Assembly (NCBI RefSeq): GCF_000024205.1 | Contig: NC_013216.1 | Coordinates: 2,666,001-2,730,000 of the forward strand | DNA: 64,000 nt | Direction of reading: 5' to 3' | Origin: Desulfofarcimen acetoxidans DSM 771 | GTDB taxonomy: Bacteria > Bacillota > Desulfotomaculia > Desulfotomaculales > Desulfofarciminaceae | Part shown: piece after piece, positions 14,457 to 47,780 of the stretch | How positions within the stretch are numbered: the stretch's first letter is position 1 | Layout: every line of letters begins with the position of its first letter | Made by a program: the position numbers and the translations under genes | Notes under the pieces: model-generated | Told to the model about the DNA's origin: nothing | The model's database searches: none | The model's input: the letters and a program-made list of their open reading frames with translations, nothing else

Positions 14457-14505
14457 GAGGGGCGTATCCGAGAGGGTGAGGGTTCAAGTCCCTCCTCCGA
14501 CACCA
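14457..14505 (+). repeat. tRNA-Leu-type 3' end remnant, copy 1 (putative attachment site)
   Basis: Contains the T arm GAGGG-TTCAAGT-CCCTC, acceptor strand CTCCGAC, discriminator A and CCA. No 5' half (expected GTCGGAG) precedes it, so this is not a functional tRNA. A73 and a long variable arm favour leucine. Direct repeats lie at 20660, 26654 and 47709. A hairpin with ACTATGG...CCATAGT and a T tract follows (14522-14552). Confidence 0.8.
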
Positions 14506-14795
14506 AAAAGGCTTTAAGTTAAGGACTATGGTATTATGCCATAGTCCTTTTTGTTTTTCTCAGCGTGTGCTATTAACACGCATAGTGTTTACTGGAATCA
14601 GCAATAAAGCGTTGTACACACGTCCTCTATTTGTTTTGTTCGGTGAATGGCCTAAGCCTCGCGAGCCAGCCATGTCGTTAACGCACCGATGGTTGGCCGC
14701 TGGTATTTCTGGGTTTTCCACCTGCGGTCATACTCAGCAAAGACGGTATCAATGGCTAACAGTTTTTCTGCTGAATCAAATAAATATAGCATGAT

Positions 14796-14933
14796 TACAG
14801 TTACCCCGGCCTTAAGGTTCTCTGGCGTGGCTTCCGGCGTCTTCAAGATCTGACCACTATGTGGAATCTTTTTCATCCATCTGGTACTTGTGGATAATGG
14901 TAAGGGCTGAAGCCAGGGACTTTACGGGCCGTC
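14796..14933 (+). mobile_element. 3' remnant of a second IS4/IS50-like element
   Basis: Nearly identical to 11430-11545, covering the last transposase codons and ending in a good inverted terminus (CTGAAGCCAGGGACTTTACGG). The left part is missing. The stop codon of the YvlD-like gene lies within this terminus. Upstream (14530-14795) is sequence I cannot assign. Confidence 0.85.
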
Positions 14934-15275
14934 CCGGTAATATAATAATGCAAACCTGGTCCTGTTAATTAAATATATAATAAATGCTGTTGCAAGTGAG
15001 TATTTAAAGGTAGGTATACTGATACCTGTAGTAAGGTAAGTCGATAACTGTATAAGCCACGCATTAATTACCAATGTAAATAAGCCCATTGTTATTAAAT
15101 TTACAGGTAGTGAAATAAGTAGTAGAACAGGTTGCAAAAATAATGTAATTATTCCGAGGAGAAAGCTTGCCCAAAGCATCGCGATTATTGAGGATAAAGA
15201 TATTGCAGGAAAAAGTATACTTGTAATATAAAACCCAAAAGCGTTCGTAAAACTTATGATAATTAAGTTTTTCAT
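14922..15275 (-). CDS. YvlD-like phage holin family IV membrane protein
   Basis: 117 aa with four hydrophobic segments (about 5-25, 28-48, 52-75, 90-108), the pattern of the PF04020 family that includes YvlD of Bacillus subtilis. These proteins sit in the cytoplasmic membrane and are linked to envelope stress. The last residues and stop come from the terminal repeat of an IS4 remnant, so the native C-terminus has been replaced by a few residues. It is the last gene of a four-gene operon with DUF2089, SHOCT-like and a small unknown protein. Confidence 0.8.
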   Translation of the reverse strand: MKNLIIISFTNAFGFYITSILFPAISLSSIIAMLWASFLLGIITLFLQPVLLLISLPVNLITMGLFTLVINAWLIQLSTYLTTGISIPTFKYSLATAFIIYLINRTRFALLYYRDGP

Positions 15276-15287
15276 ACTAGTACCCCA

Positions 15288-15563
15288 TTAATAAAATGAA
15301 ATACTGATTTGATTTTTGCAGAAAGTTATATCTGCCATTTGCCAACGACCCAGTTGACGTATTTCGTATAGTAGTTGTAAAACCATACTAATTGACATTC
15401 TCAGTAGTTTCAGGCGGGAAGTAAAACATTCTCCCAAAACTACTAGATCTAATACAGACTTAAGTAAATCATCAAATATAAATAAGGGTACGGGGAAAAT
15501 AAATTTCCAGACCCCATGACGAACTTTTACTAAGACAAAGTGGCTTTGGTACTTATTCCACAT
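15288..15563 (-). CDS. hypothetical protein in the DUF2089/YvlD operon
   Basis: 91 aa. Starts inside the end of the SHOCT-like gene (overlap 11 bases) and ends 12 bases before the YvlD-like gene, so it is probably co-transcribed. The sequence is fairly hydrophobic with no clear motif. The middle (VPLFIFDDLLKSVLDLVVLGE) looks helical and amphipathic. I do not recognise it. Confidence 0.5.
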   Translation of the reverse strand: MWNKYQSHFVLVKVRHGVWKFIFPVPLFIFDDLLKSVLDLVVLGECFTSRLKLLRMSISMVLQLLYEIRQLGRWQMADITFCKNQISISFY

Positions 15564-15969
15564 ATATTTCTACCTTCGTGCGACCTTCTTTTGGGTCATC
15601 TGTATCTACATCCACTAATTTGCCATCTACCAAGCCCTCGTCAATTAGTTGCACCAATTCTTCAAAATTGATACCTTGTAAATTAATCCCTTTTTTCTCC
15701 ATTTCCAGGCGTGCCTCTTCTGGGATAAACTTTAATCCAACATCCGCTAATTTTGTGGCTACTTTTAATAAGCTTAAGGGAACGTTAACGTTTACCTTGG
15801 TATGTTGGCCACTGGAAACACGAATTCTTATGAAACGTCCACTTATATTTGAGGGATTAACAGCCTTAATATCATTGTCCTCTATTGCCTTTAATAGTTC
15901 TAAGCCTTCAGTGGCAGTAATGGTACCATTCTGGACCATTTCCAAAATCTTAATTTTCTCATTACTCAT
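15553..15969 (-). CDS. SHOCT-like / YvlB-type N-terminal domain protein
   Basis: 138 aa. The N-terminal helix-turn-helix-like module (KILEMVQNGTITATEGLELL) is the SHOCT-like segment found at the start of YvlB/LiaX-type proteins. A beta-rich part with RFIRIRV and TKVNVNVPLSLL follows, ending in an acidic tail. A second protein with the same motif at its C-terminus is the DUF2089 protein upstream (GEITPEEAAQQL). Likely a cytoplasmic envelope-stress partner of YvlD. Confidence 0.7.
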   Translation of the reverse strand: MSNEKIKILEMVQNGTITATEGLELLKAIEDNDIKAVNPSNISGRFIRIRVSSGQHTKVNVNVPLSLLKVATKLADVGLKFIPEEARLEMEKKGINLQGINFEELVQLIDEGLVDGKLVDVDTDDPKEGRTKVEIYVE

Positions 15970-16003
15970 TACGATACACCATCCTAAAACATATTTTGGT
16001 TAT

Positions 16004-16396
16004 TTACCTTTTTACTTTCCTTAATTGCTGAGCCGCTTCTTCAGGGGTTATTTCCCCTTTCTCCAGTGCATCTAGAATATTTTGGTGGTTAGTTGATTCT
16101 AGAGGGATTTCTGCTTTACCAGTTCCATAACCAAGGGTTTGTAAAACACTATCCAGGCGGTTACGGACGGTGGGATAGGAAATACCAAGTTCCTTCTCAA
16201 CATCTTTAATACTGCCCCTGCATTTTAGAAAGACCTCAATGAATTCTATTTGTTCTTGGGGTAAGCGGCAAAATTTAGAAGGTAAAAACTCCCCTTCAAT
16301 TTTTGTACGACAGTTATTGCAAGCTAAATTAGTTATTATCATTTCATGTTCACACACAGGACAACGGTTTAAAATTTTATTGCTAATTATTCTCAC
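16004..16396 (-). CDS. DUF2089-family zinc-ribbon/HTH protein
   Basis: 130 aa. N-terminal zinc ribbon CPVCEHE...CNNC (about 12-32), a helix-turn-helix region ISYPTVRNRLDSVL (about 72-87) and a C-terminal SHOCT-like helix pair. This is the DUF2089 architecture, thought to be a DNA-binding regulator. First gene of the operon running down to YvlD. An AT-rich promoter region lies at 16400-16500. Confidence 0.8.
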   Translation of the reverse strand: MRIISNKILNRCPVCEHEMIITNLACNNCRTKIEGEFLPSKFCRLPQEQIEFIEVFLKCRGSIKDVEKELGISYPTVRNRLDSVLQTLGYGTGKAEIPLESTNHQNILDALEKGEITPEEAAQQLRKVKR

Positions 16397-16572
16397 CTCG
16401 ATTATTAATATATCAGGTCCATCGCTTTAAGTCAACTATTGAATTAATAATATTAATTATTTTTGTTAATTAAATTAACTTTATTAAGTGTGATTTTAAT
16501 TTTAATATAATAATAGGGCTGCATTTCTTATACAGCATCCCTATAATTTTGAATATTCATAAATGGCGTATT

Positions 16573-17595
16573 CTAAACAATTTCTATATCCAGCTTCGGC
16601 CTGTTATACTCACCAATTTCATCTGTTTCCTTAATAACTATCTTATCAATCAGCAAGCTAATATTTGTATTCGTAAGGGCTTTCTTCTGAATAATTTCTT
16701 TCAATACATCTATGCTTTTAATAATATTTTCCTTTTCATATTCGTTCGACTCCTCAAGCTTCTCCAATTCGGAGAGCTGTTCTTCAAGTTTGGTCAGTTC
16801 CCTGTTTGCGTCCCCCGATAGCTCCAGGAACGGTTTCTCATTGATGAACCCCTGGGCCAGCTGCCTGGAGTATCCGTTAATCCCTTCTTCCTTTTTATGT
16901 ATCTGAATTCTCACTTTTTCTGTCTGATTAACGTAGTCCCTTTTTTATTCAGCCTATCTTCAATAGTTTTATCAACTTCACTAAGCCTTAACCCGGCAGT
17001 GTAAAGAAGCACTTTCAAATTAGCCATAATAATTTCGTCCAGATCTTCCTCCATAATCCTATGGCTACCGCAGTAATTCGAGCCATATTTATGGAAGGTC
17101 GAACATACATAAGTAATGTTATTCCCTGATTTTGTTTTGCCGTTTCTGGCGACAAAGCCCTTTTTACAACTATCACATTTTAATATCCCGGCATATTTAT
17201 GAATTTTTTGATTCCCGGCCATTACCTTTTCATTAAACCTTTTTTCGAATATTTGTTGGGTCATGTTGAAGTCGTCTACATTAATAATAGCGGGCATAAA
17301 ATTAGGGTGAACAAATTGATCTTCCTTGTCCACCCTGACTTTCTTACCTTTCATTTTGCTCACCTTTGTAACACTGCAACGGAGAGTACCAATATAGGCA
17401 TCATTTCTCAATACTCTCTTTACACTTGTCGCATACCACAAATCCTTCTGAGTCCAATTCGGCTTCCACCCAAATCCGAACTTTTTCATTTCATGAACTG
17501 ATGGGGTTTCATATCCATTTTTATTTAGATACTGTGATATTTTATTGCAGCCGTAGCCGTCCAGGTACATTTTAAATATGAGCCTATTGCATAAG
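16573..17595 (-). pseudogene. large serine recombinase, C-terminal part, frameshifted
   Basis: Two overlapping frames (16911-17570 and 16573-16914) together give the recombinase domain, a zinc beta-ribbon (CDSCKKGF...C) and the coiled-coil tail of a phage-type large serine integrase. The catalytic resolvase domain with the nucleophilic Ser is absent: sequence homologous to the recombinase begins abruptly ([11 protein letters not shown]) right at the break in threonine dehydratase. The two frames meet near 16925, downstream of an A6GGG run. Non-functional. A second C-terminal relic lies at 23186-23569. Confidence 0.9.
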
Positions 17596-18145
17596 CCACA
17601 CCTGAAATTAGTCCACCGCCACCGATTGGCACAATGACAGCATCAACCCCTGGAAGTTGTTCTAAAAGCTCTAAGCCAATAGTTCCCTGTCCTGCGATAA
17701 CATTCTCATCGTCGAAAGGATGAATGAAGGTGTAGTCCTTTTCTTCCTTTAATTGCAATGCTTTTTGACAAGCATCATCATAAACACCTTCAACTAAACA
17801 AACCTCTGCACCGTAGTGTTTGGTTGCCTCCACCTTGGAAATCGGAGCACCGTCTGGTAGACAGATTAAAGATTTAATGCCGTTTTTGGTTGCTGCCAAA
17901 ACAACGCCCTGTGCATGGTTTCCAGCAGAACAAGCAATAACACCCTTTACTTTTTCCTCCTCGCTTAATTGGAAGATTTTATAGCATGCACCGCGTACCT
18001 TAAAGGAGCCGGTCACCTGTAAATTTTCAGTTTTTAAATAAATTTAACTTTCCGGATTAACATTTGGCCCATAAATTAAATCAGTCTGTCGGACAACATT
18101 TTTCAGAACGTATAAAGCATGATAAATTCTGTCTAAAGTTAACAT
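17590..18145 (-). pseudogene. threonine dehydratase (ilvA/tdcB type), nonsense-mutated and truncated
   Basis: This would encode PLP-dependent threonine ammonia-lyase, the first step to isoleucine. Start ATG at 18145 after GAGGAAATT. The PLP lysine motif TGSFKVRGA, the SAGNHAQG loop and the [10 protein letters not shown] phosphate-binding loop are all present. Codon 33 is TAA where the frame NPES(K)xYLKTEN expects Lys, a point nonsense mutation. After GVAYAI the gene is replaced by the serine recombinase relic, so the C-terminal half is lost. Its T-box leader is still present upstream. Confidence 0.9.
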
Positions 18146-18236
18146 TTTAATTTCCTCTTTTTCTTTCCAATCAATTATAGTTTTCTTTTTGTGCAGAGAA
18201 GAGATGAACTTGTGCCGCCCTGTTTAAAATTAAAAA

Positions 18237-18500
18237 GCCCTCACCTCTAAATTCATAGAGACGAAGGCTGTTAAAAGCTTCCGTGGTACCACTCTAAATT
18301 GCCGTGTAAAACGACCACTTAATGTACATCTAACAATGTACTCTCATTTAACGGTGAGAAACCGTACACGCTTAATCCCCATATTATCAAGTTTCAGCCT
18401 GTCTACTCAAGGATGATTTGGTTTCAGTATATCCTACTGTCTTCCAGCAGCTGACAGCTCTCTGTAAGGAAATCTTCTGCACCATGTCCCTATCATAGTA
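18237..18500 (-). ncRNA. T-box leader, probably isoleucine-specific
   Basis: Read on the minus strand, the region has a stem I with an AGAGAGCTG start, the T-box core GGTACCAC with GGAA after it (18280-18293), and a terminator stem (AGCCTTCGTCTCT paired with AGAGGTGAGGGCT, then TTTTT; 18237-18268). The likely specifier is ATC followed by A (near 18413-18416), matching isoleucine and the downstream threonine dehydratase. T-boxes read uncharged tRNA through this codon and the NCCA end. The leader looks intact although its gene is dead. Confidence 0.85.
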
Positions 18501-18683
18501 TTTATCACTGGTAATATACTGTTTTTTAAAAAAATTGTCAAGCACTATTTATGTAAAGGAAAGGTAAAATCCTAAGGGTTTGTTATTTTATCATCAGCAC
18601 ATGACTGACCAATCATCCGAGGCGAGTGAATATTATGGTGCTGTATACTGTGCGTTTGCTGGCACTTATAATCATCTTTCTCA

Positions 18684-19016
18684 TCACCTATTGCACAATC
18701 CGGCGCTATCAGTTTTTCTATATTCATTAGGCGTTATACCAGTATACTTTTTAAAACATTCATAAAAAGTGGATAAGCTCCCGAATCCACACAAAAGAGC
18801 AATGTTCAGTACATTCATATGTGCATCAGAAAGAAGTTGGGTTGCCTTTTTTATTCGCAATTTATTGATATACTCAATAGGAGTTATGTTGAATTGCTGT
18901 TTGAACAGGCGAATCAAATGATTTTGACTAACGTGTAACTGTTTAATTTCTAATGTGAGCTTATTGCTATTATCAAAACAGTTATCATAGATGTTTAATG
19001 TTTTAACTTAATAAAT
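18684..19016 (-). pseudogene. AraC-family regulator, C-terminal DNA-binding domain only
   Basis: The frame gives both AraC helix-turn-helix units: LHVSQNHLIRLFKQQF and VLNIALLCGFGSLSTFYECF. The visible start in the track region (18917) lies inside the first helix, and homology continues upstream to about 19010, but no effector domain is present. It sits just downstream of alkA on the same strand and may be the remains of the regulator of the ogt-alkA repair operon. Confidence 0.75.
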
Positions 19017-19036
19017 AACGAAATTTACTCCGTATA

Positions 19037-19642
19037 TTAGCGGCCAGCAGCTATTTCCCAAAGATAGAGTGATGCTATTGTACAGTACGGTGAATATCTC
19101 CTTTTATATTTCTCGAATTTTGCTTTATCCAATTTTCTGTGGTGATATAACATCATTATTCCTCGCCTAATTGCAAGATCACCCCAGCTCATTACATTGG
19201 GTCTCTGCATGGAAAATGTCATCAGCATTTCAGCAGTCCAAACGCCTATACCATTCAAAGCAGACAAGCGTTTGCATACCTCCTCGTCAGGTAGTTCTGA
19301 TAATTCATCAATATTGAATTCACCTTGCATCACAGCATCGGCGATACTTTTTATGTAGATAGCTTTTTTCATCGTAATACCACATTGTTGTATTTCTTCA
19401 GCAGTAGTGTATGCAATTTTTTGTGACGTAATCTCATCAAAACGCTCCAAAAACCTGTTCCAGACGGTAGCAGCTGCCTTACTAGAGATTTGCTGACTAA
19501 TAATGCTATGCACAAGGGCAGCAAACAAATCGGGGATGATCTCACGTTCTATTATCCCGATTCTTTCGATGGCTTCTGCCAGCTTCTTATCCTTCTTCTT
19601 TAAATAATCTATTTCAACTTGACCATAATTAAAAATTTCCAT
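19037..19642 (-). CDS. alkA: DNA-3-methyladenine glycosylase II (AlkA type)
   Basis: 201 aa. Helix-hairpin-helix GPD glycosylase that removes alkylated bases. The LSALNGIGVWTAEMLM hairpin (about 125-140) is followed by catalytic Asp in SWGDLAIRRG (about 155). SIISQQISSKAA is the family's N-terminal signature. It lacks the N-terminal extension of E. coli AlkA, as in many Gram-positive enzymes. It overlaps ogt by 14 bases, so both are co-translated in a direct-repair/base-excision pair. Confidence 0.92.
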   Translation of the reverse strand: MEIFNYGQVEIDYLKKKDKKLAEAIERIGIIEREIIPDLFAALVHSIISQQISSKAAATVWNRFLERFDEITSQKIAYTTAEEIQQCGITMKKAIYIKSIADAVMQGEFNIDELSELPDEEVCKRLSALNGIGVWTAEMLMTFSMQRPNVMSWGDLAIRRGIMMLYHHRKLDKAKFEKYKRRYSPYCTIASLYLWEIAAGR

Positions 19643-20102
19643 ATAACCTCTCTAACTCCAAAAGATACTCTTTGATTTGAAGTCCCCCAAGATAGCCGAC
19701 CAACTTTCCGTTTGCGCCGATAACCCGATGGCAGGGTATAAAAATTGGAATCGGATTTTTGTTGTTTGCAAGTCCTACCGCTCTTGATGCTTTTGGTTTA
19801 CCAACGCTCTGCGCAATCTCTCCGTAGCTCCGTGTTTCACCATAGGGAATAGTGCGTAAAGCTTCCCAAACGCTAAGCATGAACTCTGTACTGTTAGGGG
19901 CAATGGGTAGCGCAAATTTCTTACGTTTTCCTGCAAGGTAGCTCCGCAGCTGTTCAGCTGCCTCTTTGAGAAGATTTGTTTCTTGTACGACAAAGTCTTC
20001 GGCAATGTTTTCCTCTTGAAAATATAGATTCGTAATGGCGGTTCCGTTTTCTGCTATTCTTATTTCCCCAATATCTGTTTGATAGAAAAATATACTTCTC
20101 AT
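19629..20102 (-). CDS. ogt: methylated-DNA--protein-cysteine methyltransferase
   Basis: 157 aa, the normal length. The active site IPCHRVIG (Cys about 125) accepts the methyl group from O6-methylguanine in a suicide reaction. The upstream helix-turn-helix with SVGKPKASRAVGLANNKNP contains the arginine-finger region. Start ATG at 20102. First gene of the ogt-alkA pair. An AraC fragment lies downstream, consistent with an adaptive-response unit. Confidence 0.95.
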   Translation of the reverse strand: MRSIFFYQTDIGEIRIAENGTAITNLYFQEENIAEDFVVQETNLLKEAAEQLRSYLAGKRKKFALPIAPNSTEFMLSVWEALRTIPYGETRSYGEIAQSVGKPKASRAVGLANNKNPIPIFIPCHRVIGANGKLVGYLGGLQIKEYLLELERLYGNF

Positions 20103-20164
20103 GGTTTAACGCCTCCATACTACAAACGACATTATCTCCTATCTTTATTTTAATTATAGCAAGA

Positions 20165-20420
20165 ATTGTTCATATCTGTCTTCCGGTATTTCACCATGTA
20201 ATTCCGGCAAGGGTATCCTCCAAGCGCAATGTCTTCGGCAACAAACTGATCGAGAGAAATTATCTCCGGAGCACGCCGCCTGAGGTTGTTCAAACAGGCA
20301 TTTACTATAACCTAACGCAGCTAGTGCTTAAAGGGCCGGCTAAGTTGAAATTTATCCAGCCTAGTCAACACTTTCACGAGTACTTCCTGGGTAAGATCCA
20401 TGGCATCTTCATGTAAACTG
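20165..20420 (-). pseudogene. ECF sigma factor fragment with two in-frame TAG codons
   Basis: Minus-strand translation reads EDAMDLTQEVLVKVLTRL, then DKFQLSRPFKH, a TAG, LR, a TAG, then VIVNACLNNLRRR. This is sigma region 2 of an ECF factor (normally DLTQEVFVKV...W..I..N...). The two TAG codons stand where Trp and Arg are usual. There is no region 4. It is a decayed fragment. The neighbouring 20420-20650 stretch contains a short plus-strand frame I cannot place. Confidence 0.7.
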
Positions 20421-20659
20421 GCAGGAAACCAATATTGACCGCTTTGACAAAGCAAAGAAATACACTATACAGGAATTAAAAGAAAAGGGCTATACATTGA
20501 CCTTTGCGGCTTCTCCCACGAGGAAAAAAAGTTTTTAAGCCAAAAGAGTTGATAGAAAACATATTCACAGTCTGGCACTTCCTTTAAAATTATATCCTCT
20601 GCCACAACGGTTCAATTACCTCATAAAGCTTTATTTTCTTTTGACTCCAGAAAAGAAAA

Positions 20660-20731
20660 CTACCACGAAGTAACGCGACCATGATGGGCGTATCCGAGAG
20701 GGTGAGGGTTCAAGTCCCTCCTCCGACACCA
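20660..20731 (+). repeat. tRNA-Leu-type 3' end remnant, copy 2
   Basis: Same T arm, acceptor strand and CCA as copy 1, but the repeat also includes the preceding 27 bases (CTACCACGAAGTAACGCGAC). That extension is shared with copy 3 and, less exactly, copy 4. One base differs in the variable-arm region (ATGATGGG rather than ATGAGGGG). Confidence 0.85.
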
Positions 20732-20741
20732 AAATAAAAAC

Positions 20742-20778
20742 GAAGCCGAATGCTGATAAAACGTTCGGATTTTTTAAT
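20742..20778 (+). terminator. repeat-associated terminator, type A
   Basis: CCGAA...TTCGG stem followed by TTTTTT. Almost the same sequence follows copy 3 (26736-26771) and occurs alone at 49290-49322. Confidence 0.75.
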
Positions 20779-20925
20779 TTTGAACACTTTTTATACACAA
20801 TTTCCCTACCATAGTCCGATTTAACAAATCTAAACGTATTGCTACTTTTTTAGTCAGTTAGCAAATAAGATACGGTCTAGGCCTTCAAAGCTGTTAGCTG
20901 TGCCCGGATCAAGTAATATATACCA

Positions 20926-22071
20926 CTAGTAAGATGGAGCTTCTACAAATATAATCGTTGTATTTTTTGTTTCTTTCGCTCTATATAGGGCCTTGTCTGC
21001 AACATGTACCAATTCATCTAGATTTGTTGTAAGGTTTGTTGAACTTAAACCTATGCTAATCGTAATTTGACACATAAATTCAATTGCTTCAACAGATTTG
21101 CGAATTCTCTCTACTACTTCATAAGCAGTCTCAATGTCTGCATTGGAAAAAACAATTGCAAATTCCTCTCCGCCCCAACGAACCACCGTATCAATGCGTC
21201 GAACATTTTGTCTTAAAGTGTTTGCTATCTTTTTCAACGCTACATCACCTGCAAGATGTCCGAATGTGTCATTGATTTTTTTAAAGTTGTCCACATCTAT
21301 AATAGCTAAGGATGTAGGGTTACCCGTTCTATTTGTTCGTTCAAGCTCCTCTTGTAAGTTCACATGAAAGAATTGCCTATTCCACAGACCTGTTAGAGTA
21401 TCAATTCCCACTCCTTTTCTTAACTTATCAATTAAATAAAAGAATAGGATACTGCATATCAGCAACAGTGAGACTATAATCGCATTGTATAAAACCACGG
21501 TTTTCAAATTTAAACTGGGATTAAGTAGCCCGACAAAGTTAAAGAAAACTGCAGTTAGTAACATTAGTAAGATGAACAATGCCGGGTTGTTAGTTGATGG
21601 CGAGGCCAAATCCTTTTTGTACTTATACGTTCTTATTAAAAGTATAATTGAAATATTAATTGTGTTTTGGATTAACACTCCAAACAGTAATAGTAATATA
21701 TGTTGATGAAAATAGGTTACCGTATATCCAAAAACCTCCACAGAAATCAATGCAACTACGGTTTCCCCTAAAGCATCAATTATCGAAAATATGGCAACAG
21801 AAAAGAATGCCTCTTTCAGCTTGAAGTTGCAAATTACCTTTAATAAGAACAGCGTAACCAAAATGTAAAATAATGATTTATAAGCATAGTTTAACCCACC
21901 TGGAACATTTAATATTACACCATTAGCTAAGGTTCCAGAGATTAAAAATAAGTGGTTTTGTTTAAGACTTGTTCTTGCACCAAACAATGTAAGTGTTAAG
22001 TATAATACTGCAACGACATTTAGCCCCATAGCAAAAAAATTATATGCAATTATAGACGGGGGTAACAACAA
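20926..22071 (-). CDS. membrane-bound diguanylate cyclase
   Basis: 381 aa. Six to seven hydrophobic segments occupy residues 5-210, followed by a GGDEF domain (about 220-378). The signature is GGEEF (RWGGEEFAIVF), which is catalytically competent; the preceding DVDNFKKINDTFGH metal-binding motif is complete. It makes cyclic di-GMP from two GTP in response to a membrane signal. There is no RxxD inhibitory site in the usual place. It lies between the type A terminator and the related hairpin module at 22175, so it appears to have been inserted into a repeat unit. Confidence 0.92.
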   Translation of the reverse strand: MLLPPSIIAYNFFAMGLNVVAVLYLTLTLFGARTSLKQNHLFLISGTLANGVILNVPGGLNYAYKSLFYILVTLFLLKVICNFKLKEAFFSVAIFSIIDALGETVVALISVEVFGYTVTYFHQHILLLLFGVLIQNTINISIILLIRTYKYKKDLASPSTNNPALFILLMLLTAVFFNFVGLLNPSLNLKTVVLYNAIIVSLLLICSILFFYLIDKLRKGVGIDTLTGLWNRQFFHVNLQEELERTNRTGNPTSLAIIDVDNFKKINDTFGHLAGDVALKKIANTLRQNVRRIDTVVRWGGEEFAIVFSNADIETAYEVVERIRKSVEAIEFMCQITISIGLSSTNLTTNLDELVHVADKALYRAKETKNTTIIFVEAPSY

Positions 22072-22174
22072 ACCAAATCATCTCCTTAAAAATATCTTTT
22101 CTCCATATTTTCGGAAATTCCTTTAATTTTTTAGAGTCATCGGTACCGACTGCCACTTTTTTGTATCATTAGAC

Positions 22175-22290: not shown

Positions 22291-22327
22291 TGATGTATAT
22301 TTTCCTTTTTATGCGACATATAACTTC

Positions 22328-22355
22328 TTGCGTATATTAGAAAACATGGTATAAT
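22328..22355 (+). promoter_or_regulatory. sigma-A-type promoter of the acetyltransferase leader
   Basis: TTGCGT (22328), 16-base spacer, TATAAT (22350). Transcription would start about 30 bases before the leader ORF. Confidence 0.6.
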
Positions 22356-39899: not shown

Positions 39900-40085
39900 C
39901 CTCCATGCTCAACTGTATATTTTTGAAACATTCATCCCAAGGCAAACAGTTACAATGTAAACTGTTCTCTAACAAGTTTTGCGGCGTTCTAATTTGAAGA
40001 ATCTTCTACTTTAACTCCATCCGTTTATTAACTGTATTGATCTCCATCTATCTGAGGGGGGAACATCTGAATCAAATCCATTATA
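39900..40085 (-). pseudogene. merR remnant upstream of the tandem YnfA pair
   Basis: DNA closely matches 27300-27490, the 3' half of the intact merR gene, but the winged-helix half is missing and unrelated AT-rich sequence follows to 40279. The tandem pair has thus lost its own regulator. Confidence 0.85.
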
Positions 40086-40279
40086 TTACCATTAATAAAT
40101 AATCAGTATAATAAAGTAATTACATTATTAAGGCATAGGGATGGTAAACATAGTTATCAAATATTATAGTCGCTTTCTGTTCCATTACTACAGAGACCAC
40201 TAATCCCATTTTAAAAAAATTATAAAAAGACAAATAAGGAACCTTCTTGCAACTGGACAAAGATATGCTGCACCTTTCG

Positions 40280-40933: not shown

Positions 40934-41679
40934 TATTTTCCTCCCCCTAACAAGTAAAATTCAACAAGCTTTATGATGGCCATCACAATCAGAAATACAA
41001 TGATGATTTTCGTCAGCTTGCTTCTATCCAACTTTTTGAATACTTTCATAGCCGGCAACAGGACTATCACGCAGACTACACTGGCAATAGCAGAGTACTC
41101 AAAAGTTTCCAGTGTTATATTGCCTTCGATGATATGCTGAATCAAAAGTGTTGCGCATGAGATAAGCAAAGTTGCCTGCAGATTGGCAAGGTAGTGAATA
41201 TTTTCTTCAAAAATACTGTGATAGTAATATCCCAATGGAGGTCCGCCTATGCCGAGCATGTTGCATACGCCGGTTGCGCAGCCAGCCAAGATACTGTTGG
41301 GAACAGAAGCTTTTATCTGCCACCCTCTGTCGGAAACGATGAACAAACCTGCGAACAGAAGCAGGATGATAACTAGTGCGATTGTTAGAAAATCATCGCT
41401 CAGTACAAACAAAAAATAAGTGCTGATAATTTGCATAATTACAACGGGGATGGTAACTGGCAAGATTTTCTTTATTTCCACATTTTCTCGTGTTTTAAAT
41501 AGAAGCACACAGCTTATCACAATGGCGCAGATCACGGTAACAGCAACAGACGTCTGATAACTAAACACAAAAGGAAGAAAAAGCATCATAGGAATACCGA
41601 TGCCGAATCCTGTAAGTCCCTGAACAAATGCAGACAAACCTACTATCAAAATCAAAAATAATAAAGCTTCCATTTCCAT
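40933..41679 (-). CDS. TauE/SafE-family sulfite/anion permease
   Basis: 248 aa from the ATG at 41679 (GGGAGGTATAACG upstream; the longer frame to 41754 has no site). About eight membrane helices in two repeats; SAFVQGLTGFGIGIPMM and GCATGVCNMLGIGGPPLGYYYH are family signatures. Exports sulfur- or carboxyl-containing anions; the substrate is undefined. Operon with DUF3786. A degraded copy lies at 36064-36338. Confidence 0.88.
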   Translation of the reverse strand: MEMEALLFLILIVGLSAFVQGLTGFGIGIPMMLFLPFVFSYQTSVAVTVICAIVISCVLLFKTRENVEIKKILPVTIPVVIMQIISTYFLFVLSDDFLTIALVIILLLFAGLFIVSDRGWQIKASVPNSILAGCATGVCNMLGIGGPPLGYYYHSIFEENIHYLANLQATLLISCATLLIQHIIEGNITLETFEYSAIASVVCVIVLLPAMKVFKKLDRSKLTKIIIVFLIVMAIIKLVEFYLLGGGK

Positions 41680-42007
41680 ATCGTTATACCTCCCTAACTT
41701 TGTTAATAAATATCTTTGCGGAACTGTAACAAAGCGACCAGCGCCCGTTACCACGATCTCAAAGAAGTTCAGAAAGGCAATATTAGCGGCTATTATTCAG
41801 GCACTACCATCAGACAGATGGGAGCGATAATATCCAACGAGATCATGACAAGCGTATAGGGAAGATCCACTCTTTCCAGTGTCTTTTCATTGCTCTGCTC
41901 TTACCAGATACCCATGACTTACACCATACTTATCCAGCACCAATGTGGATTTTTACAATTGACTAAATGACTAAAGACGGGTTGCAATTTAGAGAACCCC
42001 AACTGAA
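41680..42007. other. intergenic stretch without a supportable gene
   Basis: 328 bases. A short plus-strand frame near 41760-41860 (KGNISGYYSGTTIRQMG) may be debris of a lost gene, not identified. Confidence 0.4.
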
Positions 42008-42466
42008 TTAATCTTTATCATTTTTCTCCTTAGCCGATGTCTTATTATACAAGCGGTTAATGTCGTTGAGAAAACATAAAATAATGGATTGCTCGTATTC
42101 GCTATAGGTATTTATCAAAGATAATTTCTCCTGTCTGGCTTGACTATGCAACTTTTGGTGTTCGTTATAAACATGTTGCCCGCCCTCAGTCAGTCGATAA
42201 TAAATTTCCTTGTTATTATCTGGTCGTTGGTAACTCTCGACCAATCTCTTACTTAGTAGTTTTTTGCATATTTTACTAATAGCCCCTCTTGTCATCTCCA
42301 TCTCGTTTGCTATTTTTGTGACATTTGCATATTCAATTGTGCCAATCCGATCAATACAGTGAACTTCTGCCAGGTTAACGTCATCAAACGTAACCTCCCA
42401 TCCATGAGGGAATATATTTTCTTGAATTTTTATGATTGAATTCACGATTTGCATGGCTATGTTCAT
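42008..42466 (-). CDS. MarR-family transcriptional regulator
   Basis: 152 aa from the ATG at 42466, chosen for GGAGGTG at 8 bases (the longer frame to 42493 lies inside the operator). Winged helix: YANVTKIANEMEMTRGAISKICKKLLSKRLV with the wing RPDNNKEIYYRLT. Flanking dimerisation helices. The promoter carries two operator copies, so it very likely represses itself. No obvious target gene is adjacent: arsR and arsM lie on the far side of debris. Confidence 0.9.
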   Translation of the reverse strand: MNIAMQIVNSIIKIQENIFPHGWEVTFDDVNLAEVHCIDRIGTIEYANVTKIANEMEMTRGAISKICKKLLSKRLVESYQRPDNNKEIYYRLTEGGQHVYNEHQKLHSQARQEKLSLINTYSEYEQSIILCFLNDINRLYNKTSAKEKNDKD

Positions 42467-42481
42467 ACAACAGCACCTCCA

Positions 42482-42539
42482 TTTTGTTGACATGGAAACA
42501 AAAATAATATATCATTTTTTTGTTTCCATGTCAACAAAA
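42482..42539 (-). promoter_or_regulatory. marR promoter with duplicated operator
   Basis: On the minus strand TTGACA, 17 bases, TATATT. The -35 lies in one arm and the start region in the other arm of a long inverted repeat (about 23 bases each, TTTTGTTGACATGGAAACA). Each arm holds GTTTCCATGTCAAC, itself a partial dyad, a good MarR site. Confidence 0.8.
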
Positions 42540-42541
42540 AA

Positions 42542-42831
42542 GCACGGTATATTTCGCCAGATGTTGCTAAACTCCGCTTTCAAAGCCGCTGGTTAAGGTG
42601 AAATATGAAGAAATAGGCGAGGTCTTTAAAAATGCTCGGAAACTGCTGAAGCGTGTAAAAACGAAACTATATTCCTGACAGTGCCCGAAAGCAATATGCC
42701 CGGGTACTGCTGGAGGAGTATAGAAGAGAATTTCAACCGGAAGAAAACAGAGTCGGTGCAGCGGCAGAATTAATTGATACTCCGGGAACCGGCTGAGAAA
42801 ATGCAATGGAAAACCTGGTTGAAAGGAAAGT
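42542..42831. other. gene debris between marR and arsR
   Basis: Plus-strand pieces (YEEIGEVFKNARKLLKRVK near 42600-42665; QYARVLLEEYRREFQPEENR near 42690-42750) are broken by stops. Not identified. Confidence 0.4.
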
Positions 42832-43143
42832 TTATAGCCGGGAAATTAGCATTTTATAGTGTTCAATAATCCCGTCACGGAGACAATAGCACACTTTGGG
42901 TCCGTCTATTTCACCAATAATCCAACCAGACTCCTTAAGAATTTTTAAATGCTGTGAAACAGTGGATTGAGCAATCGGAAGCACTTCTACTATATCCTTA
43001 CACATGCATTTATCCTTTTGATCGCGTTGCGATAAAAATTTAATTATAGATACCCGGTGTGGGTGTCCAAGAGCCTTCGTGAGAATTGCCAATTCCTCTT
43101 TCCAGTTACCTTCTGAATATTGATTTTCTGTAAGATAGTCCAT
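42832..43143 (-). CDS. arsR: ArsR-family metalloregulator
   Basis: 103 aa. Winged helix with CMCKDIVEVLPIAQSTVSQHLKIL; the CxC pair (about 48-50) in the alpha-3 region is the classical arsenite site together with a nearby Cys. Acts as a repressor released by As(III). It is downstream of arsM with a 21-base gap, so co-transcribed. Start ATG after AGGGAGAG. Confidence 0.92.
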   Translation of the reverse strand: MDYLTENQYSEGNWKEELAILTKALGHPHRVSIIKFLSQRDQKDKCMCKDIVEVLPIAQSTVSQHLKILKESGWIIGEIDGPKVCYCLRDGIIEHYKMLISRL

Positions 43144-43164
43144 AAAACTCTCCCTTAAAATATT

Positions 43165-43956
43165 TCAGATCGGTTTAATAGCTCGAATATCTGCTGAAAC
43201 TACCACTTTTTCGATGTTCTGTCCAAAATTCCAACTATTAATAATTTCTTCACTATTAGCTTTATTTTTTACTAAGATATTTTTAAATCCGGCTTTGTTT
43301 AATATGCTAACCAGTTCGTTTTGTAGTATAGCCCCTGAGATACAGCCGCAGTATGCTTCATTATTATTTCTAATTTCTTCAGGAAGCTCATCCACCCTAA
43401 CGACATCCGAGATAACAATTTTTCCCCCAGGCTTTAAGACACGAAAAGCCTCATTAAAAACAGCCTGTTTGTCGGGGGAGAGGTTAATCACGCAGTTGGA
43501 AATAATAACATCCACGGAAGAATCGGCTACCGGTAAATGTTCAATCTCTCCCAATCTGAATTCCACATTGCTAAAACCCATGCTTGCTGCGTTATGCCTA
43601 GCTTTAGATATCATTTCAGGAGTCATGTCTACACCAATAACATTCCCACTTGGTCCCACCTTGCGGGCAGCCAAAAAAACATCAAAACCGGCCCCACTGC
43701 CCAAATCAAGCACTACCTCTCCGTTTTTTAGTTCTTCAATAGCCAGTGGGTTGCCACAGCCTAAGCCGAGATTGGCTTCACCCAATCCAAGTTTTAACTG
43801 TTCGTCTGAGTAACCCAGCTTTTTACTAATGTTTAAAACATCGTTGATATTATTACCAGGTATACAACAATTACTACCAGAACAACAACCGCTTGGACTT
43901 TTTACTACTTGAGAATACTTATTTCTTACCATGTCTTTAATATCATTTTTATTCAA
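43165..43956 (-). CDS. arsM: arsenite S-adenosylmethyltransferase
   Basis: 263 aa. The N-terminal Cys-rich SGCCSGSNCC (about 22-31), the SAM-binding LDLGSGAGFDVF (about 83-94), and the conserved Cys in ISNCVINLSPDK (about 157) and AYCGCISGA (about 205) match ArsM. It methylates arsenite to volatile or less retained species. Start TTG at 43956 after GGGGG. It forms an arsM-arsR operon on the minus strand. Confidence 0.93.
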   Translation of the reverse strand: MNKNDIKDMVRNKYSQVVKSPSGCCSGSNCCIPGNNINDVLNISKKLGYSDEQLKLGLGEANLGLGCGNPLAIEELKNGEVVLDLGSGAGFDVFLAARKVGPSGNVIGVDMTPEMISKARHNAASMGFSNVEFRLGEIEHLPVADSSVDVIISNCVINLSPDKQAVFNEAFRVLKPGGKIVISDVVRVDELPEEIRNNNEAYCGCISGAILQNELVSILNKAGFKNILVKNKANSEEIINSWNFGQNIEKVVVSADIRAIKPI

Positions 43957-44113
43957 ATGATTACCCCCTTATTTTTCATCGACGATTAACGATAAAAGGT
44001 TTTCAATATTATATAACAGTTTGTGTTTCGTTAAAAGTGTTAAAGTCAAAGTTGGTTTCCAAAATTATTATTTACTGAATATATTCATTATTATATTAAA
44101 TGTTTAGCTTACT

Positions 44114-44134
44114 ACTACATTAGAATAATGTAGT
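44114..44134. promoter_or_regulatory. perfect dyad upstream of arsM and the 44267 gene
   Basis: ACTACATTA-GAA-TAATGTAGT, perfect 9-base arms, in the divergent region 43957-44266. The size and AT-rich form fit an ArsR-type operator; the binding protein is inferred. Confidence 0.6.
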
Positions 44135-44266
44135 ATAGTAGTCAAATAGGTGTACATTTGGATAAGTAATCCTTGCCTCAAAATAATTTATATCAATCTG
44201 ATACCTTGTCTTATCTACTTAGTTTTTTAGATTAACTAAATAGCATAGCAAAAGGTGATGGTTATT

Positions 44267-44356
44267 ATGGAAGTTGTCATTTTGGATAGCTGTTGCGGAC
44301 ATGGTGAGACTTTACTCCAAATGGTGGAAAAATTAATGCAGGAAAGGAGTCTGTAA
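44267..44356 (+). CDS. 29-aa protein with a CCGH motif, possibly truncated
   Basis: MEVVILDSCCGHGETLLQMV and a short charged helix. AAAGGTGATGG precedes the ATG at a good distance. It follows the dyad at 44114 and is divergent from arsM. The paired Cys may bind arsenite. It may be the head of a longer thioredoxin-like gene lost to deletion. Confidence 0.45.
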   Translation: MEVVILDSCCGHGETLLQMVEKLMQERSL

Positions 44357-44411
44357 AATAGAATTTCAGTTAAAATAACTAAAGCCACTCTTAAGATTAT
44401 GAGTTGCTGTT

Positions 44412-44597
44412 ATGGATAACTATGATGATGCTATTGGCAATTATAAACTAATCTGCGGTTGCGATTATAAGGATGAAAAATTTCTGCAACTAGCAGTGCA
44501 ATCTATCCTTTACACCTCCAGGGAGACCACCGAAGAAAATAAATCATGGCTCAGGCAATTGCCGGATAGGATTTCCTTTGGTAATATACAATTATAG
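44412..44597 (+). pseudogene. unidentified short frame
   Basis: 61 codons (CGCDYKDEKFLQLAVQSILY). No ribosome binding site, no recognised family. It sits in a run of fragments (44400-45018), so probably debris. Confidence 0.3.
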
Positions 44598-44635
44598 AAT
44601 ATTAAAGTCTGATCATATGTCTGGTGGGGAAGTTT

Positions 44636-44851
44636 ATGAATTACATTGAAATAGTCAATGACGTCATACAATATATTGAGTCAAATTTGCACCCGAAGCT
44701 ATGCTTGAAGGAACTGGCATCCCGGTATTACTTTTCCCCCACCCATTTCCATCACATCTTCCGAGCAGTTACTAATCAGACAGTAAAATCATATATACTA
44801 GGGCGAAAGCTGTCCGAAGCTGCTATTGCTTTGAAGGTGAATCTCTTATGA
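44636..44851 (+). pseudogene. AraC-family regulator, first helix-turn-helix only
   Basis: 71 codons: VIQYIESNLHPKLCLKELA then RYYFSPTHFHHIFRAVTN. This is the first of the two helix-turn-helix units of AraC proteins; the second unit and the rest are replaced by LKVNLL and a stop. GGTGGGGAAG precedes the ATG. Confidence 0.75.
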
Positions 44852-45018
44852 ATACTGGATTTGATCCATTAACATTAGATGAAGATCTCACCCATCTAGG
44901 CTTACGTGTTCATGAGGATTTAAGCCCATTGGATATTGAAGAACGCTACTTTAAGGGACGTACGGATTATTACCGTGCGACGGAGCATGCTTACATTGCA
45001 TATGCAGTAGTGGAATAA
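44848..45018 (+). pseudogene. C-terminal end of a class I SAM methyltransferase (TIGR00027-like)
   Basis: 56 codons with DEDLTHLGLRVHEDLSPLDI and ERYFKGRTDYYRATEH, the typical end of leucine carboxyl methyltransferase-like enzymes. The SAM-binding part is absent. It directly follows the AraC fragment, so a deletion joined two genes. Confidence 0.7.
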
Positions 45019-45367
45019 ATTTCAAGTTAAAGTCTTTGTCCCCTTTCTCTTTTGATTTAAGTGCCGAGATAGTATTTACTTTATTTATCACATTCTTGAT
45101 GTAATACACAGCAAAAAACCGAAGTTAAATCATATCATTTTAGGACTGTCAATACTATTCTAAGAACTTATCAGGTTCTTCTCACATGCTGATCGCGAGA
45201 AAGCAACATAAAGTATCTCCTGGTCAGCCTACATCGTAAAATTTCAATACAAAATATAGAGCATAATATGTTAAGTCAAATATTCCATGATTGTTTTAAA
45301 ACTTTAAAAAGTATATACTGGTTATAGACAAAATTAATTATCCATAACGTAAGCGTTCACGTTAGCC

Positions 45368-45407
45368 AACGCACTATCTAACCTACTGGGTCGGAGAGTG
45401 CGTTTTT
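45368..45407 (+). terminator. terminator or attenuator before the SDR gene
   Basis: AACGCACT...AGTGCGTT followed by TTTTTTG, 50 bases upstream of 45456. The preceding 45019-45367 stretch has no gene. Because no gene ends just before it, it may attenuate the SDR transcript. Confidence 0.6.
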
Positions 45408-45455
45408 TTGTCTCTCCATCTGGTATGAATTAATACTTTAAGGAGATGACAAAAT

Positions 45456-45842
45456 ATGAAGAAGAAAATAGCTTTAGTATCTGGCGGGAGCCGTGGATTG
45501 GGCAAAAACATGGCAATTAAACTTGCCCTAAAAGGTTTGGATGTAATTATCACCTACCAAAGTAAAAAAGAAGAAGCTTCACTGGTAGTAGAAGAAATCA
45601 AAAAAGCCGGTGGCAAGGCAACCGCTTTGCAATTAAATATAGGCGATGTACGGTCTTTCGGCCCTTTCTTTGAGCAGATTGCCGAGGTATTAAAAGTAAC
45701 CTTTAACACTAACTGTTTTGATTATTTGATTAACAACGCAGGCATTGGCATGAATGTTCCTTTTGCAGACACCACCGAAGAACAGTTTGACCAAATGATG
45801 AATGTCCAACGAATTGAAGTATCCGGTGGAATGAACATATAG
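45456..45842 (+). pseudogene. short-chain dehydrogenase/reductase with a large internal deletion
   Basis: Residues 1-117 give the cofactor fold (VSGGSRGLGKNMA, NNAG), up to EEQFDQMMNV. The next residues QRIEVSGGMNI are the normal extreme C-terminus of such enzymes. So about 120 residues, including the catalytic Ser-Tyr-Lys, have been lost in frame. Good AAGGAGATG before the ATG. The product cannot be a reductase. Confidence 0.85.
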
Positions 45843-45924
45843 AATCAAAAATTGTATATGAGACCGTATAATAAAGGTCAAGATCAAAGAGGGTGCCCCT
45901 GTAAGGAGGCACCTTCCCTTCTCA

Positions 45925-47034
45925 CTATAGGAGAATTAGTTCATAGTCACGGCTGCCCAATCCGATTTCTTCTCCGTAAGATAATTGGATTGTTCCGTCT
46001 ATATGCGATCTCAAACAATGAAATTTGTCAGCACCGGCCTCGCAGTCAGACAAAAGCAAAGACGTGGATAAACTAATCTGTTTATTCACAAGATCATAAC
46101 TGGCCTGGTCAATAGCAACCGGGTCTGTTGATGCCAGAAAACCTATATCGGGAACAATGGGAGCATCACTCCATGACGCGCAATCACAATCAGGGGTAAT
46201 ATTTATAAGAAAATTGATGTAGCCGATATGTTTATCATGAGTCTTTGCCACCCCATACGCGTATTCAGTCATTCTTTCCAGAAGTGCTGGAATTTCGGTT
46301 TCCCAATCCATTTCAATAGCTTTTTCAGGGCATGTGGTTAAACACTCACCACAACCGATGCAACTATCCGGTGAAATTTCCGCCTTATTATTATCGTTAA
46401 GAGTGCTGGCCTTTTCAGGACAAACTGTAGAACACTGCGCGCAGCCAATACATTTGTCTTGATTAACTATCATCTTGGAGGCATGCTGTTCCTTTTTTCC
46501 AGCTGCCGGTGCCCCACCCATGGCAAGATTCTTTATCGCGCCACCAAAACCAGCCATTTCATGCCCTTTAAAATGCGATAACACAATAACACTATTAGCG
46601 CTAACGATATCTCTGGCCAGTTTTACTTTGCTAAAATGTTTTTTACTAATCTCAATTTCAATGAAATTTTCACTACGTAATCCGTCTGCAATTATCAGTG
46701 GAGCACCTGTAACAGTATAATCAAAACCATGCTCCATCGCTGTTAGCAGATGATCCACCGCATTATGGCGGCTTCCTGAATAGAGGGTATTGGTATCTGT
46801 CAGGAAAGGCCTGGCACCATTGCTTTTGACTTTATCCACCACCTGCCGCACAAATACAGGGTTTATAAAACTATCGTTGCCGCGTTCACCAAAATGAAGT
46901 TTAATAGCTGTAAGATCATCTTTTTGAACAAGATTGTTTAAACCAGCGCGATCAAATAAGTTTCTAATCTTACTAATTTTATTTTCCTGATATGTTCTGG
47001 ATCGCAAATTGACGAAATAAACTTGACTTGGCAT
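45925..47034 (-). CDS. DUF362 protein with two 4Fe-4S ferredoxin clusters
   Basis: 369 aa from the ATG at 47034 (GAAAGG lies 9 bases upstream; the ATG at 47043 is too close). The DUF362 domain (about 1-180 and 260-360: TAIKLHFGERGN, VLSHFKGHEMAGFGGAIKN) encloses CIGCAQCSTVCP and CIGCGECLTTCP (about 197-240). An iron-sulfur protein of anaerobes, probably cytoplasmic; the electron partner is unknown. Downstream neighbour is MerR on the same strand. Confidence 0.92.
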   Translation of the reverse strand: MPSQVYFVNLRSRTYQENKISKIRNLFDRAGLNNLVQKDDLTAIKLHFGERGNDSFINPVFVRQVVDKVKSNGARPFLTDTNTLYSGSRHNAVDHLLTAMEHGFDYTVTGAPLIIADGLRSENFIEIEISKKHFSKVKLARDIVSANSVIVLSHFKGHEMAGFGGAIKNLAMGGAPAAGKKEQHASKMIVNQDKCIGCAQCSTVCPEKASTLNDNNKAEISPDSCIGCGECLTTCPEKAIEMDWETEIPALLERMTEYAYGVAKTHDKHIGYINFLINITPDCDCASWSDAPIVPDIGFLASTDPVAIDQASYDLVNKQISLSTSLLLSDCEAGADKFHCLRSHIDGTIQLSYGEEIGLGSRDYELILL

Positions 47035-47185
47035 GAACCTCATCCTTTCAAAAATAAGTTTTGGGCATCAGGCATGTTTCATTTCGGGTTTTCTCTGTTA
47101 TCTTTGGCATTGCAAACACCGGTGAATTCGGAATTTCCACCTTTACTCGGGTTGGTAGACAACACCATACTTTTTAGCCATAAAA

Positions 47186-47572
47186 CTAAATCTCCGATCT
47201 TTTTAGCTCTCTTTCTTTTTTTACTACTACCTGTTCATATACTTTAATTTTATAATCCAGGCGTTCCAGCGTTTTCTTCATATCTTCCATCTTAGCAATT
47301 AACCGCTTACGCTGTTCGATTAAAATTTCTTTTCTTGCCTCAATGGTTGCATCACCTTGCTGAAACAACCCAACATACTCAATCAGTACTTCAATCGGAA
47401 GACCTGCACCCCGCATACACTTTATAAATCCTACCCAACTACAGTCTTCTTCCGTATAATTCCTGATTCCATTTTTATTTCTATTCACATGGGGTATCAA
47501 TCCGATGCGTTCATAATAGCGGAGTGTATCCTGTGGAATATCAAATTTTTCGCTTACTTCTGAAATCGTCAT
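47186..47572 (-). CDS. MerR-family regulator, aldehyde/reductase-type
   Basis: 128 aa. Winged helix VSEKFDIPQDTLRYYERIGLI, IRNYTEEDCSWVGFIKCMRGAGL with the single Cys and MRGAGLPIE of the AdhR/YraB group, then a coiled coil. It probably activates stress or reductase genes. Its own promoter at 47598-47628 has the long spacer and dyad. The SDR gene ruined at 45456 would have been a typical target. Confidence 0.9.
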   Translation of the reverse strand: MTISEVSEKFDIPQDTLRYYERIGLIPHVNRNKNGIRNYTEEDCSWVGFIKCMRGAGLPIEVLIEYVGLFQQGDATIEARKEILIEQRKRLIAKMEDMKKTLERLDYKIKVYEQVVVKKERELKRSEI

Positions 47573-47597
47573 GCAGTTTCACCTCCCGATATCCGAT

Positions 47598-47628
47598 ATT
47601 ATAATACTTGGAGTAAGCTACAAGTCAA
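47598..47628 (-). promoter_or_regulatory. MerR-type promoter of the 47572 regulator
   Basis: Minus strand TTGACT, 19 bases, TATAAT. The spacer holds ACTTGTAGCTTACTCCAAGT, an imperfect dyad of the MerR type. Confidence 0.85.
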
Positions 47629-47708
47629 GCGTTTTTAATGGGAATTCAACAAAATTTAACTGCACTCCTATTAGAAAAAATTATATGTTATTATAGAATT
47701 ACTTAACC

Positions 47709-47780
47709 TGACCGCGAATTAACGCGATCATGAGGGGCGTATCCGAGAGGGTGAGGGTTCAAGTCCCTCCTCCGACACCA
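47709..47780 (+). repeat. tRNA-Leu-type 3' end remnant, copy 4
   Basis: Matches copies 2 and 3 over 72 bases, with more changes upstream (CTGACCGCGAATTAACGCGATC). T arm, acceptor strand and CCA are exact. Confidence 0.85.

What the first reader, a model, noticed from the sequence alone, without database searches (positions are those of the whole stretch)
14457..47780. Four direct tRNA-Leu 3'-end remnants divide the region into stacked islands
Copies at 14457, 20660, 26654 and 47709 share the full T arm, acceptor strand and CCA in the same orientation without any 5' half. Integrative elements often use tRNA 3' ends as attachment sites and recreate them at each insertion, so a series of direct copies suggests repeated integration at one tRNA gene. 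Copies 2-4 also share about 27 bases upstream, so the repeated unit is larger than an att core.
Basis: partly seen in the sequence, partly recalled or inferred. Interest (0 to 1): 0.75.

Follow-up and report, generated by a model that had tools for sequence, protein, structure and literature searches.

The report
Stacked mobile islands behind tRNA-Leu gene
Four broken copies of the tail of one leucine tRNA gene mark where mobile DNA elements plugged in one after another; this is a known way for bacterial genomes to grow, here with a conjugative-type element that carries two facing integrases at the head of the stack.

Summary
The window is part of the chromosome of Desulfotomaculum (Desulfofarcimen) acetoxidans 5575T (identified by exact genome length). 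All four copies lie downstream of it in the same orientation, start in the anticodon arm and end at CCA. They look like attR junctions: an arm shared with islands in other genera meets a tRNA 3' half that, for copies 1-4, is the host's own allele. Copy 1 closes an 82-kb ICE-like element that starts at the tRNA with two facing tyrosine recombinases. Copies 2-4 share another arm (B-type, 22 nt), found in 4 more of 113 order genomes. The three islands they close (6.2, 5.9, 21 kb) hold cargo and no detected tyrosine recombinase. 3'-partial copies of this tRNA occur in 18 of 113 genomes. A same-family relative has about 18 kb where this genome has 380 kb between the tRNA and the next conserved block, but no clean empty site was found. 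Best reading: serial integration, older islands decayed to CIME-like remains, as in Dehalococcoides ssrA islands. A new member of a known kind; the facing integrase pair and integrase-free B-type islands are the less ordinary parts.

The parts
1..14447 (.). Right part of the 82-kb ICE-like element that begins at the tRNA (C1:2598366) outside the window; VirB4-like 2996-5374(-), TcpE 5375-5752(-), TcpC 6108-7019(-), transposases 7599-8732(+), 10130-11533(+), 12104-13918(-)
   Evidence: Pfam; integrases at its left end
14372..14447 (+). A-type right arm of the element's attachment site (approximate left limit)
   Evidence: aligned with arms of G098, G066, G065, G030
14448..14505 (+). Copy 1: tRNA-Leu(GAG) positions 26-83, attR of the ICE-like element
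14506..20681 (.). Island E2 (6.2 kb): DUF2089, serine-recombinase fragment in a PALP gene, T-box, HhH-GPD and MGMT genes; no tyrosine recombinase detected
20660..20681 (+). B-type right arm of copy 2
20682..20731 (+). Copy 2: tRNA positions 34-83, 1 substitution
20732..26675 (.). Island E3 (5.9 kb): GGDEF, GNAT, IS630-type transposase; no tyrosine recombinase detected
20732..20808 (+). B-type left end of E3 (first 77 nt; a further piece like the inner part lies at 22189-22309)
26654..26675 (+). B-type right arm of copy 3
26676..26725 (+). Copy 3: tRNA positions 34-83, 1 substitution
26726..26934 (+). B-type left end of E4
26726..47730 (.). Island E4 (21 kb): YnfA/MerR (twice), DUF3231 x3, P-type ATPase, TauE, ArsR, methyltransferase, DUF362, MerR; no tyrosine recombinase detected
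47709..47730 (+). B-type right arm of copy 4 (17/22)
47731..47780 (+). Copy 4: tRNA positions 34-83, exact
49281..49455 (+). B-type left end without a tRNA piece: probable further, more decayed boundary
61697..62617 (+). Gene whose relative (70% over 261 aa) lies about 2 kb beyond the remnant in G001: possible outer limit of the array

Best explanation
A tRNA-Leu(GAG) gene has served repeatedly as attachment site for integrative elements. Each element's integrase crosses over in the anticodon loop, at or next to TTGAGGGG. The element brings its own copy of the tRNA 3' half, so the tRNA is restored, and the displaced host 3' half stays at the far end of the insert as a remnant. Repetition stacks elements in one direction. 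Copy 1 is the far end of an ICE-like element with two facing tyrosine recombinases next to the tRNA; copies 2-4 are the far ends of older B-type islands that share one arm and keep cargo but no integrase (decayed, CIME-like). Shown: positions, orientation, arms, alleles, integrases, recurrence in relatives. Inferred: the recombination chemistry, newest-nearest order, loss of integrase by decay, present activity.
For: Intact tRNA and five remnants, all +. Two integrases start 0.1-2 kb behind the tRNA, coupling protein, VirB4-like, TcpC and TcpE in the same element. A-type arm of copy 1 aligned in four other genomes; B-type arm in 5 of 113 genomes, reversed-pattern control 0. Copies 1-4: own tRNA allele is the unique best of 10. 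27 copies of positions 26-36 to 83 in 18 of 113 genomes against 2 copies of positions 1-40 only. Ten-kb G+C 33.6-39.3% from 2600 to 2730 kb against 41.6% for the genome (PMC3035247). G001 has about 18 kb where G000 has 380 kb.
Against: No clean empty site; the 380 kb are not explained by the array alone (about 115-130 kb), the rest was not analysed. 5 of 14 remnants tested are not uniquely closest to their own genome's tRNA, among them the G000 remnant at 3590 kb, which also lies far from the tRNA. The G022 arm is not followed by a tRNA body. No integrase is known for the B-type arm. Low G+C also occurs in other 10-kb blocks further downstream.
Confidence: 0.88

Rival explanations
1. The B-type islands are not decayed autonomous elements but non-autonomous units: cargo between two attachment ends, moved in trans or in cis by an integrase encoded elsewhere.
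For: No PF00589 match in 3 of 3 closed islands; no hit of a home-made integrase HMM in five B-type contexts of four other genomes; arms kept across families; partly similar cargo beside B-type arms in G098 and G100.
Against: Several of those contexts end at contig ends; the HMM was checked only against its own members; islands carry IS insertions and substituted cores, which fits decay; related cargo may be coincidence. No circle or trans movement shown.
Confidence: 0.2
2. Copies 2-4 arose by duplication of one attachment region inside a single large island, not by separate integrations.
For: Copies 2 and 3 share 22 nt upstream and 77 nt downstream.
Against: Similarity stops at those limits, as expected for att arms; the neighbouring genes differ apart from a few small repeats; the same arm meets tRNA 3' halves in other genomes.
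Confidence: 0.07
3. The core is part of an ordinary dispersed repeat or transposon that happens to carry a tRNA 3' end.
For: One copy lies at 3590 kb, and one B-type arm in G022 has no tRNA body.
Against: The other four G000 remnants lie within 116 kb downstream of the intact tRNA in one orientation; breakpoints fall in the anticodon arm (positions 26-36) in 18 genomes; two unrelated arms precede the same core.
Confidence: 0.02

Closest known systems
Dehalococcoides ssrA-specific genomic islands (PMC3146451; passages read)
   Same: Tandem islands within about 100 kb behind one RNA gene, bounded by direct repeats of its 3' end, with a short conserved motif upstream of the repeats; 15 islands there lack an integration module.
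   Different: Target is ssrA with a 20-bp repeat and a serine recombinase (DsiB, Ccr-like); here tRNA-Leu(GAG), 50-58-nt remnants and tyrosine recombinases, with conjugation genes in the element next to the tRNA.
CIMEs and accretion with ICEs/IMEs, mainly streptococci (PMC5704250; passages read)
   Same: Elements that lost integration and transfer genes but kept attL and attR, stacked with an integrase-bearing element.
   Different: Whether att sites still work and whether anything is mobilised here is untested; other host phylum branch and other target.
ICEMh1 / ICEPmu1 in tRNA-Leu(UUG) (PMC6861422; passages read)
   Same: ICE in a tRNA-Leu gene, repeat in the anticodon loop, one intact and one broken tRNA copy.
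   Different: Other tRNA-Leu, Pasteurellaceae, 11-bp repeat; stacked islands not described in the passages read.

Membership tests
Tandem array of tRNA-targeted integrative elements | Remnants derive from a tRNA gene at the head of the array, same orientation | tested here: met
   four of five remnants, one lies at 3590 kb
Tandem array of tRNA-targeted integrative elements | Site-specific integrase next to the intact tRNA | tested here: met
Tandem array of tRNA-targeted integrative elements | Empty or partly filled site in a relative | tested here: inconclusive
   G001 has a different, shorter filling; 1 of 17 relatives looked at shares a convincing right-flank gene
ICE (tRNA to copy 1) | Integrase and flanking att repeats | tested here: met
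ICE (tRNA to copy 1) | Conjugation machinery: coupling protein and VirB4-type ATPase | tested here: met
   T4SS-DNA_transf; AAA_10/TraG; TcpC, TcpE
ICE (tRNA to copy 1) | Relaxase | tested here: inconclusive
   PF03432 has no match there; other relaxase families and part of the ORFs not searched
ICE (tRNA to copy 1) | Excision and transfer | not testable with these tools
   needs bench work
CIME (islands E2-E4) | att sites on both sides | tested here: met
   each island lies between two remnants; function of the sites unknown
CIME (islands E2-E4) | No integrase | tested here: met
   0 of 32 PF00589 matches in the window; none of 51 window ORFs scanned with Pfam, of 88 listed
CIME (islands E2-E4) | No conjugation genes | tested here: inconclusive
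   none among the island ORFs scanned; small ORFs not scanned
CIME (islands E2-E4) | Mobilised in cis by a neighbouring element | not testable with these tools
   needs excision or transfer assays

The most novel reading that the evidence does not exclude
tRNA-Leu(GAG) in this order is a shared dock for at least two kinds of element: ICE-like elements that use two facing tyrosine recombinases as one module, and integrase-free B-type cargo units (metal, stress and DNA-repair genes between fixed arms) that spread between families in trans rather than being decayed autonomous elements.
Probability: 0.18. Interest if true: 0.6.

Novelty: new member of a known kind. Interest (0 to 1): 0.35.

Why it matters
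It shows one tRNA gene enlarging a sulfate reducer's chromosome and gives readable end sequences (A- and B-type) for finding integrative elements across the order. The facing integrase pair next to tRNA-Leu(GAG), and in one genome next to tRNA-Leu(CAG), raises a testable question: why two recombinases. Integrase-free islands with a shared arm would bear on how cargo without its own integrase spreads.

Tried and rejected
Named relatives: the gene at window 48375-49040 found nothing in genome contigs; the CoaE gene beside the tRNA gave 14 loci, best identity 49%, so relatives are reported by G handles only. B-type arm in viral contigs: 0 stretches with an exact match; this does not exclude diverged phage copies. 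B-type left end as an ordinary dispersed repeat: 7 matches at 6 places genome-wide, four of them in the window, rejected. Array ending exactly at copy 4: rejected, because a B-type left end lies at 49281 and the relative of the G001 flank gene at 61697. One ancient split of all facing pairs into int1 and int2: not supported (int1 label needs 3 changes, int2 3); only the A-type group behaves so. Serine-recombinase fragment in E2 as the B-type integrase: not favoured, it lies against a truncated PALP gene away from the island ends. Closest plasmid and phage matches of int1 are under 60% identity (best rows 37% and 31%). Papers on facing integrase pairs: searches found none; the listings (1, 3 and 7 papers) and passages of two papers showed no such pair; this does not prove absence from print. 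D. acetoxidans with integrative/integrase terms: 0 papers.
Full report
Where it is. The window is bases 2666001-2730000 of a single 4,545,624-bp contig. That length equals the published genome of Desulfotomaculum acetoxidans 5575T, 41.6% G+C (PMC3035247, passages read). The identification rests on the length, which I first recalled and then checked in that paper; the newer name Desulfofarcimen is recalled. Other genomes are known only by handles.

The observation. The four copies are the 3' part of one tRNA. A 28-nt core with up to 3 mismatches hits the genome six times, all on +: the intact tRNA-Leu(GAG) at 2598366-2598448 (ARAGORN), the four window copies, and a remnant at 3590 kb (3590072-3590121). 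Copy 1 matches tRNA positions 26-83 and copies 2-4 positions 34-83. ARAGORN finds no tRNA in the window.

What the repeats are. Upstream of copies 2 and 3 lie the same 22 nt; copy 4 has 17 of 22. A 27-nt pattern of this arm plus the start of the core, up to 3 mismatches, occurs in 5 of 113 genomes: G000 three times, G098 twice, G059, G100 and G022 once each; the reversed-pattern control has none. In G059, G098 and G100 the arm runs into a tRNA-Leu 3' end of that group's type; in G022 only TGAGGGG follows. The arm shares 7-8 of 22 positions with the tRNA part it replaces. On the core side the own tRNA is the unique best of 10 alleles for copies 1-4 (0-1 mismatches, next best 3-4). Of all 14 remnants tested, 9 are uniquely closest to their own genome's tRNA and 5 are not (the 3590-kb remnant, G059, G098 C197 and C57, and G100 by a tie); G098 is listed with 8% contamination. 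This pattern fits attR junctions: element arm, crossover in the anticodon loop, host tRNA 3' half. Copy 1 has another arm (A-type), which aligns with arms in G098, G066, G065 and G030.

The element behind copy 1. From the tRNA to copy 1 is 82 kb. Its first genes are two tyrosine recombinases of 335 and 336 aa that face each other and overlap at their 3' ends, then ParB and, further on, ParA. Other genes are ArdC, a T4SS coupling protein, T2SSE and an SLT/M23 protein, two T2SSF, and in the window VirB4-like and TcpC and TcpE. PF03432 relaxase has no match there. I call it ICE-like. G098 contig C57 looks like a small relative: tRNA-Leu 3' end at base 1, integrases at 73% and 62-63% identity, A-type remnant at 16898 of 16972 bases.

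The facing pair. In one search (int1 against 113 genomes, E up to 1e-30) facing neighbours occur in G000, G098, G028, G030, G057 and G002. One search adds G066 (second gene cut by the contig end) and G079 (second gene in two frames), so 8 of 113. An intact tRNA-Leu(GAG) lies directly upstream in G000, G066, G079, G030 and G028; G098's contig starts inside its 3' end; G002 has tRNA-Leu(CAG). G057's contig starts with another tRNA-like 3' end, read by eye; ARAGORN reports no gene there. Int1 of G000, G098, G066, G079 and G030 form one clade (100/99) and int2 of G000 and G098 another (100/99, joined by G030 at 93/97). Over all pairs, int1 and int2 are not two clades. By eye both G000 proteins keep the R-K-HxxR-H-Y residues (motif recalled; alignment). 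The five single integrases at this tRNA form their own clade. A Cohnella plasmid has three recombinases in the order + + - with a facing pair.

The islands in the window. E2 (14506-20681), E3 (20732-26675) and E4 (26726-47730) contain none of the genome's 32 PF00589 matches, and none of 51 window ORFs scanned with Pfam, of 88 listed, is an integrase of that family. One search is not exhaustive: a weak match in the ICE-like element appeared only. Cargo by Pfam: DNA repair, GGDEF, acetyltransferase, P-type ATPase, ArsR/MerR/MarR regulators, TauE, methyltransferase, DUF3231 and transposases. Downstream of copies 2 and 3 lies a shared left end: 77 nt at copy 2, about 200 nt at copy 3. It recurs at 49281 without a tRNA piece, in part at 22189 and 2924250, and its first 43 nt behind the 3590-kb remnant. 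A home-made HMM of 19 integrases finds none in the window, in five B-type contexts of four other genomes, or around 3590 kb; its only hits are its own members, and several contexts end at contig ends. Relatives of E4 genes lie on the same contigs as B-type arms in G098 (DUF3231, 42%; methyltransferase, 44-48%) and G100 (P-type ATPase, 39%), which may be coincidence.

Recurrence. With the G001 tRNA as query 98 of 113 genomes match at E up to 1e-8. Copies that start at 26-36 and end at 83 number 27, in 18 genomes, most in G000 (five) and G098 (four). Copies of positions 1-40 only number two. I did not check each for a nearby intact tRNA; the G032 copy (85%) may be something else.

Empty site. 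In G001 (same family) the genes left of the tRNA are collinear with G000. Behind its tRNA come an integrase, a 12-kb element, a remnant, a short stretch like G000's sequence behind the intact tRNA with an integrase fragment (28 aa), then a relative of window gene 61697-62617 (70% over 261 aa). Further genes have collinear counterparts at 2978-2990 kb in G000. So about 18 kb there stands against 380 kb here. The array accounts for about 115-130 kb; the rest (2730-2978 kb) was not analysed and may be rearranged chromosome. Of 17 relatives (20 stretches), only G001 shares a convincing right-flank gene. G+C per 10 kb is 33.6-39.3% from 2600 to 2730 kb, then 41-46% for the next 40 kb; low blocks occur further on too.

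Mechanism and verdict. Serial site-specific integration at tRNA-Leu(GAG), with older islands reduced to cargo between att ends, explains the main facts. The nearest precedents are Dehalococcoides ssrA islands (PMC3146451) and CIME accretion (PMC5704250), both read in passages. Newest-nearest order, decay of B-type integrases and present activity are inferred.

Noticed in passing
window 16911-18505: A T-box leader (18254-18505, -) stands before a PALP-family gene that is cut short where a serine-recombinase fragment (16911-17570) begins.
   Followed up: no
genome C1:3590072-3590166 (L006): A fifth remnant with a B-type left end, 0.9 Mb from the array; its core is one mismatch nearer to G030's tRNA than to this genome's own.
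   Followed up: partly
G022 C17:40389-40415 (L191): A B-type arm followed by TGAGGGG but no tRNA body: perhaps a secondary integration site or a rearrangement.
   Followed up: partly
window 26969-27695 and 39214-40082; 36072-36363 and 41326-41704: Inside E4 the YnfA/MerR genes and a stretch around TauE are duplicated, with no remnant between: E4 may itself be composite.
   Followed up: no
genome C1:1487469-1489916, 2412606-2415053, 3865311-3869046: Runs of three or four tyrosine recombinases on one strand, like 'recombinase in trio' elements (name recalled, also seen in the term search).
   Followed up: no
L166:6878-6945 (G098 C197): A decayed tRNA-Leu copy that keeps its 5' half lies 0.3 kb behind a B-type remnant.
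   Followed up: no
G104 C16:828-885 and 1639-1721: Intact tRNA-Leu(GAG) and a 26-83 remnant only about 0.75 kb apart: a very short island or a deletion.
   Followed up: no
L208:2054-5072 (Cohnella herbarum plasmid NZ_CP051681.1): Three tyrosine recombinases in the order + + -, the last two facing each other, 72 bp apart.
   Followed up: no
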